The notes beneath the pieces are model-generated. The model did no database searches and was not told where the DNA came from. It was given only the letters and a program-made list of their open reading frames with translations. Of a stretch of 57,543 bases of DNA, positions 3,253 to 57,543 are shown piece by piece. The stretch is from a virus: IMG/VR virus record IMGVR_UViG_3300021343_000001, positions 1 to 57,543 of that record, one strand, 5' to 3'. How positions within the stretch are numbered: position 1 is the stretch's first letter; every line of letters begins with the position of its first letter. The position numbers and the translations under genes were made by a program.

Positions 3253-3367
3253 GGATCTGTAGCTTAAACAAGCCATTCAACACCAAACGTAAATACCTTC
3301 TGCGTCCGTCGAATCGTGAGGAAGAGCGCTGCAAAGCAGAGGTGCGGGTTCGACTCCCGCCAGATCC
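3253..3367 (+). tRNA. tRNA-like locus, 115 nt, atypical or degenerate (possible tRNA-Cys relic)
   Basis: GGATCTG (3253-3259) and CAGATCC (3361-3367) pair perfectly as a 7-bp acceptor stem. GCGGG-TTCGACT-CCCGC (3344-3360) is a perfect T arm, and T-A then GCTT (3262-3265) match positions 8-13. The middle is abnormal: about 40 extra bases separate the D stem from a GGAAGAGC-like second D half. CTGCAAA (3330-3336), which would be a tRNA-Cys(GCA) anticodon loop, has no adjacent 5' stem. A distant TCTGC (3299-3303) could pair with GCAGA (3336-3340). No CCA is encoded. It could be an interrupted tRNA, a dead tRNA or a tRNA mimic. Confidence 0.4.
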
Positions 3368-3396
3368 CTTGGCACGACAACAAAAGGAGAGGAGAG

Positions 3397-22010: not shown

Positions 22011-22310
22011 TCACGCCGCCGTAAGGCAGTTGATGAAGTCTCGGTGCGCTTCGCTGTGTGCGTAGGCGCGAGCCATGGTGTAGAGGTCGCCCGCCTTGCC
22101 GGTGAAGGCGATGTCGGTGAAGACCGCCTCGAAGGTCTCGAGCGCCGTGTTGTAGTTGTCCTCGAGGCGGCTGTCGAAGTTGTCAGCGCAGTAAACGGCG
22201 GATGCCTCGCGAGCGGTGCGGAAATAGAGCCCTTCGTTCGCGCAATCGCGGAGGTAGGTGATTGCTTCGGTGCGGATTGCTTCGAGTGCTGCGGTAAGTT
22301 CGTTGTTCAT
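22011..22310 (-). CDS. Hypothetical acidic protein (99 aa), first gene of the leftward block
   Basis: ATG 22310 is preceded by the 16-base leader hairpin and a TTGACG-N17-TAAGTT promoter. Acidic, aromatic-rich helical protein (NFDSRLEDNYNTALETFEAV). It is followed by a terminator, so this gene may be expressed more than the four genes behind it. Its size, acidity and control region resemble those of the 88-residue gene at 49187, although I cannot align the proteins with confidence. Confidence 0.75.
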   Translation of the reverse strand: MNNELTAALEAIRTEAITYLRDCANEGLYFRTAREASAVYCADNFDSRLEDNYNTALETFEAVFTDIAFTGKAGDLYTMARAYAHSEAHRDFINCLTAA

Positions 22311-22312
22311 TT

Positions 22313-22328
22313 TCTCGCTCCTTCGAGT
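22313..22328 (-). promoter_or_regulatory. CsrA/RsmE-type SD hairpin leader, copy 2
   Basis: Same 16 bases as at 21927: CTCG-AAGGAG-CGAG with the Shine-Dalgarno in the loop, ending two bases before the ATG of the 99-residue gene. Confidence 0.65.
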
Positions 22329-22362
22329 TGTTGCGTGGGTCATTCCCTCGCTGACAAGAACC

Positions 22363-46471: not shown

Positions 46472-46839
46472 CACTCCTCCTCACCATCATTGATGATCTT
46501 GACGAATCGTTCACCGTCAATCCAGACTTCCTCCCATCCGCCAAGATAAATGTGCTGCTCGAGGTCAAACTTGTCACCCATGGCTTCCTCTGTCATCGGG
46601 TAGAGTCGATCCCACGTCGTCTGAAAGGCGACCGGCAAGTCCTTTCTGAACGCTGCCAACCCTTCTTCGAGGAACATGGGGTAATGACGCACATGCGCCG
46701 TCCCGATAAACTCCACCATCGCTACAGCAACCAGCGCTTCTCTCGGAGTTTTGAACTTAACCCATCTCACATCAAGGCCCTCACCGATCACGAACGCAAT
46801 GACCCATGGACGTTCACCCTTATCGCCAAGATAAATCAC
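46471..46839 (-). CDS. Hypothetical protein (122 aa)
   Basis: GTG start (46839) behind GGAGGGTGACAA, overlapping the upstream gene. Alpha/beta with WVIAFVIGEGLDVRWVKFKT and YLGGWEEVWIDGERFVKIIN. Not recognised. Confidence 0.7.
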   Translation of the reverse strand: MIYLGDKGERPWVIAFVIGEGLDVRWVKFKTPREALVAVAMVEFIGTAHVRHYPMFLEEGLAAFRKDLPVAFQTTWDRLYPMTEEAMGDKFDLEQHIYLGGWEEVWIDGERFVKIINDGEEE

Positions 46840-47333
46840 TTGTCACCCTCCTTCCTCTCACCGTCGATCCAAGCCTGAACGCTCTTGCGGTCCATGTCGT
46901 GAGGCAACCACTTTGCGCACACCTCGAGCAGCGCGAGCGCATCCTCGAGAGCCTTGCGTGTGTCGCCCTCTGCTGGACAGTAGTCGCGCGTTTGCTGACG
47001 CTCGATCGCAGACGCGACGAGTTGGCGCACGCCGAACATCGGATCACTCAGGTCAACCTGGGCATCTTCGATCAGCCCGCGAATGCCGATGTAGGTTTCG
47101 CACGATGCGAGGCTGATCACCATGCACCGATGCTTCACGAGCAACGCGAAGCGCTCCCCCTTGTCGGTGCACGTCTTGATCTCCTCTCGGATTTGCCCGA
47201 TGCGCTCCGCGAGGTCGACCGCCTTCGCAGACCATTCCTCTTGTGTGGCATCCATGGCTTGCGCCATCATCATCGGCACGATCGCCTCGACGCGCACGTC
47301 CACGATCACCTTGTCCTGCTTCTCTTCTGTCAT
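46836..47333 (-). CDS. Hypothetical helical protein with unusual leader (165 aa)
   Basis: ATG 47333 behind AGGAGAGGAGAG. Helical (DLAERIGQIREEIKTCTDKG and ALEDALALLEVCAKWLPHDM). The 126-base leader toward the ERF gene holds a hairpin (47379-47402) whose leftward loop is GAGGAGTT, plus a second GAGGAGAGG. On the opposite strand it holds the putative small RNA. Function unknown. Confidence 0.7.
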   Translation of the reverse strand: MTEEKQDKVIVDVRVEAIVPMMMAQAMDATQEEWSAKAVDLAERIGQIREEIKTCTDKGERFALLVKHRCMVISLASCETYIGIRGLIEDAQVDLSDPMFGVRQLVASAIERQQTRDYCPAEGDTRKALEDALALLEVCAKWLPHDMDRKSVQAWIDGERKEGDK

Positions 47334-47347
47334 CTCTCCTCTCCTGT

Positions 47348-47375
47348 TTGACGGTCCTTTCATCAATGCTACAAT
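47348..47375 (+). promoter_or_regulatory. Sigma70-like promoter of a putative rightward small RNA
   Basis: TTGACG (47348-47353), 16 bases, TACAAT (47370-47375): five of six matches in each box. It points rightward inside a block where all genes are leftward. The predicted start is near 47382, at the foot of the first hairpin. Confidence 0.6.
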
Positions 47376-47378
47376 GAG

Positions 47379-47461
47379 CGCGACCCAACTCCTCGGGTCG
47401 CGTCACCTCTCCTCGACGCGCGAGCCCCGCCAACCTCTACTGGCGGGGCTCGCTTTGTTTT
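47379..47461 (+). ncRNA. Putative small RNA with exposed anti-Shine-Dalgarno segments
   Basis: From about 47380 the RNA would have hairpin 1 (CGCGACCC 47379-47386 with GGGTCGCG 47395-47402, loop AACUCCUC), a linker containing CACCUCUCCUCG (47404-47415), and hairpin 2, a perfect 12-bp terminator stem followed by CTTTGTTTT. Both the loop and the linker are complementary to AGGAG / CGAGGAGAGGUG, the ribosome-site type used throughout this phage. Promoter, compact structure and terminator fit together. Alternatively the same bases act only as the leader of the leftward gene at 47333. Confidence 0.55.
47421..47460 (+). terminator. Rho-independent terminator of the putative small RNA
   Basis: CGAGCCCCGCCA (47421-47432) pairs perfectly with TGGCGGGGCTCG (47441-47452) around an 8-base loop, then CTTTGTTTT. 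The T run is only on the plus strand, so the element terminates rightward transcription; no rightward protein gene ends here. Confidence 0.8.
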
Positions 47462-47921
47462 AACCTTCTGCGAACTCGATGATCCACGGGCCTTCCTCGA
47501 AATCACCGAGCGACGCGAGCTTGCCGAGCACCCACCCGAGCGCGCTGCCTGAGAGCTGCTCGGGGTTTTTCACCTTGCCCTTCTCACACAACTTCACGAG
47601 AAACTTCTCCTTGACCTTGCCATCGACGTGCTTGAGCAGCTCGCGTTCAACCTCTGCGAGCGTAGCCTCTTCGGGTCCAGGCGCGGGCTTGCTCGGCTTC
47701 TGCCTCGTCTTCTCACGCCTCGGTGGTCGCTGAATCGAGTCTTGCTCGGGGTCATCGCCCATCGGCAACATGAAAGCCTTCAGGAGCGCCGTGCGCAGCG
47801 CGCTCGTGGTTGCCTTGGCGACTGCCTTGTCTCCTCGGTCCTGCCCCTGCCCAACCCACGAAAAGGAGCGTTCCTCGCCAGTCACACCGTCGATGAAGGT
47901 GACGCACATCTCGAGTGTCAC
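47460..47921 (-). CDS. erf: ERF-family single-strand annealing protein, C-terminal part
   Basis: 153 residues from GTG 47921, which overlaps the stop of the N-terminal part. CVTFIDGVTGEERSFSWVGQ, then GQDRGDKAVAKATTSALRTA and LLKAFMLPMGDD are the conserved C-terminal core of the ERF domain; a Lys/Pro linker and a helical tail follow. Alone it lacks the first 80 residues of the fold. The frame would be continuous with the upstream part if one 8-bp unit at 47915-47938 were lost. Confidence 0.75.
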   Translation of the reverse strand: MTLEMCVTFIDGVTGEERSFSWVGQGQDRGDKAVAKATTSALRTALLKAFMLPMGDDPEQDSIQRPPRREKTRQKPSKPAPGPEEATLAEVERELLKHVDGKVKEKFLVKLCEKGKVKNPEQLSGSALGWVLGKLASLGDFEEGPWIIEFAEG

Positions 47922-47938
47922 CGTGTCACCGTGTCACC
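47915..47938. repeat. Three tandem copies of an 8-bp unit that split the ERF gene
   Basis: GTGTCACC (GGTGACAC in the gene strand) occurs three times: 47915-47922, 47923-47930, 47931-47938. Three copies give KGDTVTR then stop; two copies would read KGDTVTLEMCV, the expected ERF sequence. The arrangement is that of a slippage-prone repeat. Confidence 0.85.
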
Positions 47939-48154
47939 TTTGGCTTCGTGCTGCGTCACACTCGGCAACATGATCACCTGCCTCGACGCGAGCGGTGCGC
48001 GAATGGCATCGAACACCGCATCGATGCTCGCATACTTCATGCGGATGTGATCGACGCTCTTGTCTGTCGCGACTTTCTCCACCTCGAGCATGACCTCTGC
48101 GATCATGCGTGCGAGGCGGCGTGTGGGTTGCTCTTGCTTTGCTTCTTCTGTCAT
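47918..48154 (-). CDS. erf: ERF-family single-strand annealing protein, N-terminal part
   Basis: 78 residues from ATG 48154. TRRLARMIAEVMLEVEKVA and IRMKYASIDAVFDAIRAPLA, then SRQVIMLPSVTQHEAKGDTV are the N-terminal half of the ERF fold, including the KYA-x-(4)-V-x-D-A-(I/V)-R motif. The TGA at 47918-47920 lies inside the third 8-bp repeat. Either the gene is switched off in this sequence, or the overlap GTGA lets a separate C-terminal chain be made. Confidence 0.75.
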   Translation of the reverse strand: MTEEAKQEQPTRRLARMIAEVMLEVEKVATDKSVDHIRMKYASIDAVFDAIRAPLASRQVIMLPSVTQHEAKGDTVTR

Positions 48155-48459
48155 TCTCCAACTCCATCTCTAAGGATCAGCACCTCTCGCGGTGCGTCGA
48201 AATGCATCGAGGACACTGCGCCCTCGCTCCTGTACGTGATCCGCGCGCTCACATGCGCGACGTGCTCACCGAGCCTGATCGCCATGTGCGGCGACTGCCT
48301 CGACTCGGTGACAGCGCGAACCGCCCCGCTCTCGTCGAGTGCCGCGAATCTCATTCGGTTGCGGCGCGCGTTCACCTCGATCATCTCGACGCGCACGCTC
48401 TCGCCATCACACGAGAGAGTCACGCCCTCTCCCTGGCTCACTGTCAGTTTCAATCCCAT
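48151..48459 (-). CDS. CsrA-like translational regulator with two CsrA-like segments (102 aa)
   Basis: ATG 48459 overlaps the stop of the upstream gene. Residues about 1-48 (MGLKLTVSQGEGVTLS, then GESVRVEMIEVNARRNRMRF) follow the strand order of CsrA (LxLTRxxGExIxIGDxIxVxVLxVxGxxVRIG). Residues about 62-100 (MAIRLGEHVAHVSARITYRS, then HFDAPREVLILRDGV) repeat it and end like CsrA's NAPKEVxVHRxEI. CsrA is normally a 60-residue dimer; here the two halves would be fused. It binds GGA in RNA hairpins, and four leaders in this genome present exactly that. The family call is by eye. Confidence 0.45.
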   Translation of the reverse strand: MGLKLTVSQGEGVTLSCDGESVRVEMIEVNARRNRMRFAALDESGAVRAVTESRQSPHMAIRLGEHVAHVSARITYRSEGAVSSMHFDAPREVLILRDGVGE

Positions 48460-49097
48460 CACTTCACCTTCTTGCGCCAGACGCGCTTGCCTGCCCTGAA
48501 CGCGAACCCTCGACATCGATCCTCATCGTCGACGAGATGCACGCCATGTGGTTTCTCGAACTCGCCAGCAAACTCGACACCTTCGACCGTCCAGCGCTTG
48601 CGCTCGTGCAACACAATGTCGCCTCGCATGAGGTCTGCGACCGGGACGTGATCGACGCACGTCGCGTTCAAGCAGAAGGCGTCACGTCGATACATCGACC
48701 CGCACTCATGGCAGGTGTCATGCGTCGGCGCTTGCTCGGGGATGTCGTCGAACTCGAACGGTCGGCGCGCGTCGAGCGAGACGACGTTGCGCTCTTGCTC
48801 TGCGCGATCCCTCGCCTCCTCCCTGATGTCTGCGGGCAGCCTCGCGAGGATCTGTTGCCACGCTTGCGCGATCTCCTCGTCCGTCGCGAGCTTGGGCAGG
48901 TCGTGCCCCGCCTCGCTCAAGATCGACTTGAACGCGGTCACGTCCATGCAGTCGCCCACGAAGATCTGCGGGATGTCTGCACACATCTTCTCGAGCACCT
49001 CGAGTGAGGTGTGCGCGCTGTAATGCCTGGTGATGGTGAGGATGGTTGGTGTGATAGGGTCGGGATATGCGATCCCTTCGTGCATGTACTTCTTCAT
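48459..49097 (-). CDS. Hypothetical protein with C-terminal zinc-finger-like region (212 aa)
   Basis: ATG 49097 carries the 16-base SD hairpin leader. Helical N-terminal two-thirds (VLEKMCADIPQIFVGDCMDV and AQAWQQILARLPADIREEAR), then CHECGSMYRRDAFCLNATC, a likely zinc site, and a strand-rich end. It heads the operon containing the CsrA-like and ERF genes. Confidence 0.75.
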   Translation of the reverse strand: MKKYMHEGIAYPDPITPTILTITRHYSAHTSLEVLEKMCADIPQIFVGDCMDVTAFKSILSEAGHDLPKLATDEEIAQAWQQILARLPADIREEARDRAEQERNVVSLDARRPFEFDDIPEQAPTHDTCHECGSMYRRDAFCLNATCVDHVPVADLMRGDIVLHERKRWTVEGVEFAGEFEKPHGVHLVDDEDRCRGFAFRAGKRVWRKKVK

Positions 49098-49099
49098 TG

Positions 49100-49115
49100 T
49101 CTCGCTCCTTCGAGT
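49100..49115 (-). promoter_or_regulatory. CsrA/RsmE-type SD hairpin leader, copy 3
   Basis: Same 16 bases as the other three copies, ending two bases before ATG 49097. This copy heads the operon that encodes the CsrA-like protein, so the circuit could be autoregulatory. Confidence 0.65.
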
Positions 49116-49137
49116 TGTTGTTTCGTGCCTGCACCTC

Positions 49138-49186: not shown

Positions 49187-49453
49187 TTAGCCTTCCTGAT
49201 TCGCTTCCTCTTCGAGTTGCTCCTTCGCGAGCCTGAAGCCTTGCTCGATGTCCCACTCGTCTGCGAAGTCTGGAGCCTCCCACTCTTCGATGCCCGCCAT
49301 GATGGTGGCGGCGTCCGTGGTGTCAATCTCGCTCATGTACTCGAGCGCCTCAGTAGCATCGTTGCTCCCGCAGGCCGTGAAGTAGTCATAAAAGAACGCC
49401 TCCATGGCGCGTGCTGCGGTGGGGTAGAGGATTCCGGCGTGTTGGCAGTTCAT
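49187..49453 (-). CDS. Hypothetical acidic protein (88 aa)
   Basis: ATG 49453 behind the 16-base SD hairpin leader and a TTGACG-N17-TAAAGA promoter. Acidic and aromatic-rich (AFFYDYFTACGSNDATEALE). Followed by its own terminator. Together with the 99-residue gene at 22011 it is the best candidate for a regulated early effector; function unknown. Confidence 0.75.
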   Translation of the reverse strand: MNCQHAGILYPTAARAMEAFFYDYFTACGSNDATEALEYMSEIDTTDAATIMAGIEEWEAPDFADEWDIEQGFRLAKEQLEEEANQEG

Positions 49454-49454
49454 A

Positions 49455-49470
49455 TCTCGCTCCTTCGAGT
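49455..49470 (-). promoter_or_regulatory. CsrA/RsmE-type SD hairpin leader, copy 4
   Basis: CTCG-AAGGAG-CGAG with the Shine-Dalgarno in the hexaloop, one base before ATG 49453. Confidence 0.65.
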
Positions 49471-49502
49471 GGTGACGCTCATGCGTCGTTGATGTGCTTC
49501 AA

Positions 49503-57370: not shown

Positions 57371-57543
57371 TGAGGATCGACTCAGAAAGGCGATATTTCA
57401 AACTCAACGAGAAGGGCAGGGCGATCTTCGAGGAGTACTCGGAGGCGCGCGCCAAGGCGATCAGGGAGAAGCTCGAAGCGGCCAGGGCGTTGCTCGAGGC
57501 GGAAGGTTTACCAGAGGATGCAGACAAGCTCGGGTTGTTCCCG
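57370..57543 (+). CDS. Hypothetical protein, 5' part of the gene crossing the junction
   Basis: ATG 57370 overlaps the previous TGA behind GAGGAGGTGGC. The 58 codons present here continue at base 2 of the window; see the entry there. The last 127 bases duplicate the first 127. Confidence 0.8.
   Translation, partial: MRIDSERRYFKLNEKGRAIFEEYSEARAKAIREKLEAARALLEAEGLPEDADKLGLFP
57417..57543. repeat. Terminal direct repeat, right copy
   Basis: Identical to 1-127, without a mismatch. Confidence 0.9.

What the first reader, a model, noticed from the sequence alone, without database searches (positions are those of the whole stretch)
47348..47461. Putative phage small RNA carrying anti-Shine-Dalgarno sequence
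Seen: a rightward TTGACG-N16-TACAAT promoter, an 8-bp hairpin with CUCCU in its loop, a CACCUCUCCUCG linker and a perfect 12-bp terminator with a T run, all within 115 bases between two leftward genes. Inferred: an RNA of about 80 nt that could pair with the AGGAG sites of this phage or act antisense to the leader of the gene at 47333.
Basis: partly seen in the sequence, partly recalled or inferred. Interest (0 to 1): 0.8.

Follow-up and report, generated by a model that had tools for sequence, protein, structure and literature searches.

The report
Predicted phage anti-Shine-Dalgarno small RNA
Between two genes of an uncultured bacterial virus lies what looks like a complete gene for an 80-nucleotide RNA made of three hairpins, whose loops match the ribosome-docking sites of several of the virus's own genes and could therefore switch off their translation.

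Summary
On the + strand, TTGACG-N16-TGcTACAAT (47348-47375, 10/12 matches, extended -10) is followed by a 12-bp GC-rich intrinsic terminator (47420-47461). It is the only strong + strand terminator in the 57.5-kb phage contig, and shuffled sequence gives none. If transcription starts 7 nt after the -10 box (G47382), the 80-nt RNA tiles exactly into three hairpins with no linkers (MFE -47 kcal/mol, 92% of the ensemble). All three loops (AACUCCUC, ACCUCUCCUC, AACCUCUACU) are pyrimidine-rich, and loops 1 and 2 carry a CUCCUC anti-Shine-Dalgarno sequence. Loop 2 is perfectly complementary to GAGGAGAGG, found before the start codons of six phage genes, with 8-nt matches at several others including the adjacent leftward gene. 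There is no start codon inside. The layout resembles bacterial αr14/NfeR1 and sX13 sRNAs in form and the phage antisense RNAs OOP and sar in position, but no Rfam family matches and no homologue was found, so conservation could not be tested. Most likely it is a phage sRNA that occludes ribosome sites in trans and is antisense to the intergenic part of the leftward mRNA. Promoter, terminator and fold are shown by sequence. Transcription and function are inferred.

The parts
47348..47375 (+). sigma-70-type promoter, TTGACG-N16-TACAAT with extended -10 (TGcTACAAT)
   Evidence: 10/12 matches
47382..47461 (+). predicted ~80-nt non-coding RNA (+1 at about G47382, end in the T run)
   Evidence: MFE -47 kcal/mol, structure is 92% of the ensemble; no ATG/GTG/TTG before the terminator tail
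47382..47399 (+). hairpin 1: GACCC / loop AACUCCUC / GGGUC (8-bp version 47379-47402 if transcription starts earlier)
47400..47419 (+). hairpin 2: GCGUC / loop ACCUCUCCUC / GACGC; loop complementary to the phage ribosome site GAGGAGAGG
47420..47461 (+). hairpin 3 = intrinsic terminator, 12-bp stem, loop AACCUCUACU, tail TTTGTTTT
47336..47345 (-). ribosome site AGGAGAGGAG of the adjacent leftward gene; 8-nt match to loop 2, candidate trans target
46839..47333 (-). leftward gene of unknown function (165 aa) downstream of the element on the mRNA strand
47460..48154 (-). ERF-type single-strand annealing protein gene, read in two frames; its stop codon abuts the RNA's 3' end

Best explanation
The stretch is a self-contained phage small-RNA gene on the + strand, inserted in the longest gap of a leftward operon. 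A host sigma-70-type RNA polymerase starts at about G47382 and stops at 47461, giving an ~80-nt RNA of three back-to-back hairpins. The loops hold unpaired pyrimidine (anti-SD) sequence that mimics the 16S rRNA tail. Loop 2, helped by loop 1, pairs with GAGGAG(AGG) ribosome sites of phage mRNAs, and possibly host mRNAs, and blocks ribosome binding. Because the gene lies opposite the ERF-gp46839 junction, the RNA is also a perfect antisense to that part of the leftward mRNA and may promote its cleavage there. Shown by sequence: promoter and terminator matches, predicted fold, complementarity. Inferred: transcription, pairing, repression, cleavage.
For: A promoter and terminator in the same direction 45 nt apart, each rare in this genome. 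Three tiled hairpins beginning at the predicted +1, with the CU-rich loop bases 99-100% unpaired in the ensemble for +1 anywhere in 47379-47384. No start codon inside. The terminator follows no nearby + strand gene, as both flanking genes are leftward. Neighbouring leftward genes overlap by 1-4 nt, except at this 126-nt gap and one 89-nt gap. GAGGAGAGG occurs 8 times against 0.57 expected: six are ribosome sites of phage genes (1761, 9304, 17631, 18104, 53892, 56492), one is the element itself, one other. Mean loop 2 duplex energy is -9.95 kcal/mol at start regions against -5.9 in coding sequence; 5 of 200 loop shuffles do as well. The mechanism is established for NfeR1 (PMC10746234) and sX13 (PMC3771888).
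Against: No expression data. No homologous element in 2.9 million viral contigs by two loop patterns, nor in the loci of ERF, terminase or helicase relatives. The only near-identical contig does not cover this region. An anti-SD sequence is expected to match ribosome sites in general, so the target match alone is weak evidence. The duplex energies ignore mRNA structure and kissing-loop geometry. The host is unknown, so promoter use is assumed. Start sites for the target analysis were picked by eye, not by a gene caller.
Confidence: 0.6

Rival explanations
1. The RNA is real but acts mainly in cis, as an OOP-like antisense RNA on the ERF-gp46839 mRNA (cleavage or uncoupling of the two genes). 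The CU-rich loops are only the complement of purine-rich leftward leader sequence.
For: The whole RNA is antisense to the intergenic mRNA and ends at the ERF stop codon. Position and size resemble lambda OOP (77 nt) and P22 sar (68/69 nt), as summarised in PMC12197685.
Against: It does not reach the ribosome site of gp46839, and overlaps ERF coding sequence by at most about 2 nt. It does not explain why loop 2 matches the phage's extended ribosome sites in trans better than shuffles do.
Confidence: 0.2
2. No dedicated sRNA: the + strand terminator is the distal stop for rightward late transcripts that run past the last rightward gene (ends 46012) into the leftward cluster, and the promoter match is chance.
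For: No other + strand terminator-like site was found between 40000 and 47420, so late transcripts may reach 47453.
Against: It leaves unexplained the 10/12 extended -10 promoter just upstream (0.7 expected per 57.5-kb strand) and the two extra hairpins tiled from the predicted +1 (z -4.07).
Confidence: 0.12
3. The functional strand is the leftward one: hairpins with purine-rich loops (GGAG, AGGAGAGG, UAGAGG) in the mRNA leader of gp46839, acting as a decoy ribosome site or a binding site for a CsrA-type protein.
For: The - strand also folds well (z -7.44). The neighbouring gene 48151-48516 has a weak Pfam CsrA match (E 0.0017, below the curated cut-off).
Against: No T run or promoter is arranged for the - strand. 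The fold z-score is better on +. A model of the 48151 product does not find CsrA in the PDB and phmmer finds none.
Confidence: 0.08

Closest known systems
αr14 / cuckoo RNA family of Alphaproteobacteria (NfeR1)
   Same: Three hairpins, anti-SD motifs in the unpaired regions, redundant seeds aimed at ribosome sites (PMC10746234).
   Different: αr14 has the identical CCUCCUCCC in all three; here the loops differ (CUCCUC, CCUCUCCUC, CCUCUAC). Phage-borne; no Rfam match to that family even at E 10.
sX13 of Xanthomonas
   Same: Strongly structured RNA of three stable stems with C-rich apical loops that target G-rich motifs near start sites, without Hfq (PMC3771888). Rfam sX13 is the second-best, non-significant hit (18.1 bits, E 0.24, cut-off 50).
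   Different: sX13 is 115 nt with CCCC/CCCCC loops and an unstructured 5' end; this RNA is 80 nt, with CU-mixed loops and no 5' tail. Not homologous by Rfam's cut-off.
Phage antisense RNAs: lambda OOP, P22 sar, P1 c4
   Same: Short phage RNAs; OOP and sar are antisense to a phage mRNA; c4 blocks a ribosome site with sequence held in loops (review PMC12197685).
   Different: They regulate specific cII or ant mRNAs. This RNA lies opposite ERF and an unknown gene, does not cover the downstream ribosome site, and matches many sites in trans.

Membership tests
Stand-alone intergenic sRNA gene | own promoter | tested here: met
   sequence match only: TTGACG-16-TGcTACAAT
Stand-alone intergenic sRNA gene | own intrinsic terminator | tested here: met
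   12-bp stem and T run; none in shuffles
Stand-alone intergenic sRNA gene | non-coding | tested here: met
   no start codon between 47382 and 47453
Stand-alone intergenic sRNA gene | transcript detected | not testable with these tools
   no RNA-seq data
αr14 / cuckoo RNA | three hairpins with anti-SD in unpaired regions | tested here: inconclusive
   three hairpins met; CUCCUC in two loops, weaker CCUCU in the third
αr14 / cuckoo RNA | identical CCUCCUCCC motif in each hairpin | tested here: not met
   motif absent
αr14 / cuckoo RNA | Rfam model match | tested here: not met
   not among hits up to E 10
sX13 | Rfam model match above gathering score | tested here: not met
   18.1 bits against 50
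sX13 | three stems with C-rich apical loops | tested here: met
   with CU-rich rather than CCCC loops
OOP/sar-type phage antisense RNA | transcribed opposite to and overlapping its target gene or ribosome site | tested here: inconclusive
   opposite the ERF-gp46839 junction, but overlaps at most about 2 coding bases and not the ribosome site

The most novel reading that the evidence does not exclude
A phage encodes a multi-loop 16S-tail mimic: one small RNA whose loops are tuned to the extended purine ribosome site (GAGGAGAGG) shared by a set of its own genes, so that this set, and possibly host mRNAs, is repressed together at one stage of infection.
Probability: 0.3. Interest if true: 0.65.

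Novelty: new variant of a known kind. Interest (0 to 1): 0.45.

Why it matters
Three-hairpin anti-SD sRNAs are described from bacteria. My limited literature searches found no phage-encoded one. If real, it would be a compact phage device for repressing a group of genes that share one type of ribosome site, with targets that can be tested directly (1761, 9304, 17631, 18104, 53892, 56492, 47333).

Tried and rejected
Rfam, gathering and E up to 10: no family. Nucleotide relatives in INPHARED phages and PLSDB plasmids: none. Relatives of gp46839: one weak 26-residue match in IMG/VR, none in phages. ERF relatives: six distant loci, none with a similar cassette. Terminase relatives: the near-identical contig 3300021419_000007, which does not cover the element, and distant ones. 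Loop-pattern scans of IMG/VR: 8 and 12 hits, none with the fold; the 12 are almost all one unrelated repeated sequence. CsrA hypothesis for the 48151 gene on the - strand: weak Pfam hit, no support from fold or sequence search of the PDB, no relatives. A - strand terminator reading fails because no T run follows the stem on that strand. Could not do: a second sequence of the element, hence no covariation test.

Full report
Setting. The window is an IMG/VR virus record of 57,543 bases with 127-bp identical ends and 61% G+C. It carries large terminase, portal, sheath-like and baseplate-like reading frames, a DnaB-like helicase, a replication-initiator-like gene (52879) and an ERF annealing gene (the sheath, portal, baseplate and helicase names are my reading of position and sequence, not tested by profile). 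Genes run rightward to 46012, leftward from 49453 to about 45995, and rightward again from 49605. The element sits inside the leftward cluster, in a 126-nt gap; neighbouring genes there overlap by 1-4 nt except for one 89-nt gap.

Observation. The promoter matches 10 of 12 consensus bases and has an extended -10 (TGcTACAAT). In dinucleotide shuffles of the whole window, promoters this good occur 0.7 times per strand and terminators of at least 11 pairs with a T-rich tail 0.0 times; the real genome has one such terminator on + and two on -. A promoter of this quality just upstream of a given terminator is a chance event of order one in a thousand (my arithmetic).

Anatomy. Taking the usual 7-nt distance from the -10 box, +1 is G47382. 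The RNA from there to 47461 folds as GACCC(AACUCCUC)GGGUC - GCGUC(ACCUCUCCUC)GACGC - GCGAGCCCCGCC(AACCUCUACU)GGCGGGGCUCGC - UUUGUUUU, with no bases between hairpins, at -47 kcal/mol and 92% of the ensemble. The part before the terminator beats all 1000 of its shuffles (z -4.07). For any +1 from 47379 to 47384 the three CU-rich stretches stay 99-100% unpaired. There is no start codon in the transcript before the terminator tail.

Strand. The same DNA folds on the - strand too (z -7.44 against -8.76 on +), but promoter, T run and freedom from G-U pairing into the loops all point to the + strand. The opposite reading, a leader with purine-rich loops, was considered because the nearby gene 48151-48516 has a weak CsrA match. 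A structure model (single sequence, pLDDT 75) and a PDB fold search gave no CsrA, so I do not rely on it.

Targets. GAGGAGAGG, the perfect complement of loop 2, occurs eight times against 0.57 expected. Six lie directly before start codons (1761, 9304, 17631, 18104, 53892, 56492), one is the element itself, and one is elsewhere. Loop 2 pairs with start regions at -9.95 kcal/mol on average against -5.9 in coding windows, and only 5 of 200 shuffles of its bases do as well. Any anti-SD sequence would favour start regions; the shuffle result says the order of bases, not only the composition, fits this phage. In cis, the RNA is complementary to the leftward mRNA from just after the ERF stop codon to about 49 nt before the gp46839 start, so it does not cover that ribosome site.

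Second unit. A similar orphan pair exists at 52914-52803 on the - strand: TTGACG-N17-TAGGAT and a 13-pair terminator, with no leftward gene upstream. Its predicted RNA is antisense to the start codon and ribosome site of the replication-initiator-like gene 52879. Its promoter is weaker (9/12). It suggests that lone promoter-terminator units may be a habit of this phage.

Comparison. The form is that of αr14/NfeR1 (three hairpins with anti-SD in unpaired regions; PMC10746234) and sX13 (three stems with C-rich loops, Hfq-independent; PMC3771888). The position recalls OOP and sar (PMC12197685). Rfam gives no match at gathering scores, and sX13 only at E 0.24. The αr14 motif CCUCCUCCC is absent, so it is not a member; it may work like one.

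Limits. No second copy of the element was found, so there is no covariation or conservation evidence, and the host is unknown. Transcription is not shown. I hold the existence of the transcript at about 0.75 and trans action through the loops at about 0.5-0.6.

Noticed in passing
52914-52803 (- strand): Second lone promoter-terminator pair, TTGACG-N17-TAGGAT and a 13-pair terminator (52841-52810). The predicted ~75-nt RNA would be antisense to the start codon and ribosome site of the replication-initiator-like gene 52879.
   Followed up: partly
about 47915-47940 (- strand): The ERF annealing gene is split into two frames at three tandem copies of the 8-bp unit GGTGACAC; copy-number change there would shift the frame (slippage, phase variation or assembly error). 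Both halves match Erf families.
   Followed up: partly
3253-3368 (+ strand): tRNA-like gene (Rfam tRNA, 39.9 bits) with about 50 extra bases in the D-arm region; ARAGORN at default settings does not call it, and a relaxed intron setting gives a doubtful tRNA-Thr.
   Followed up: partly
48151-48516 (- strand): Small all-beta protein, apparently two similar halves, with a sub-threshold Pfam CsrA hit (E 0.0017) that a fold search did not support.
   Followed up: yes
1-127 and 57417-57543: 127-bp identical ends; the near-identical contig IMGVR_UViG_3300021419_000007 appears to run from about window 51116 past the window's end into its start (inferred from gene positions), so the ends are probably a circular-assembly overlap rather than true terminal repeats.
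   Followed up: partly
22303-22333, 49090-49120, 49445-49475: 31-bp repeat with TCTCGCTCCTTCGAGT, i.e. the ribosome site CTCGAAGGAGCGAGA of several leftward genes, a second ribosome-site type in this phage.
   Followed up: no
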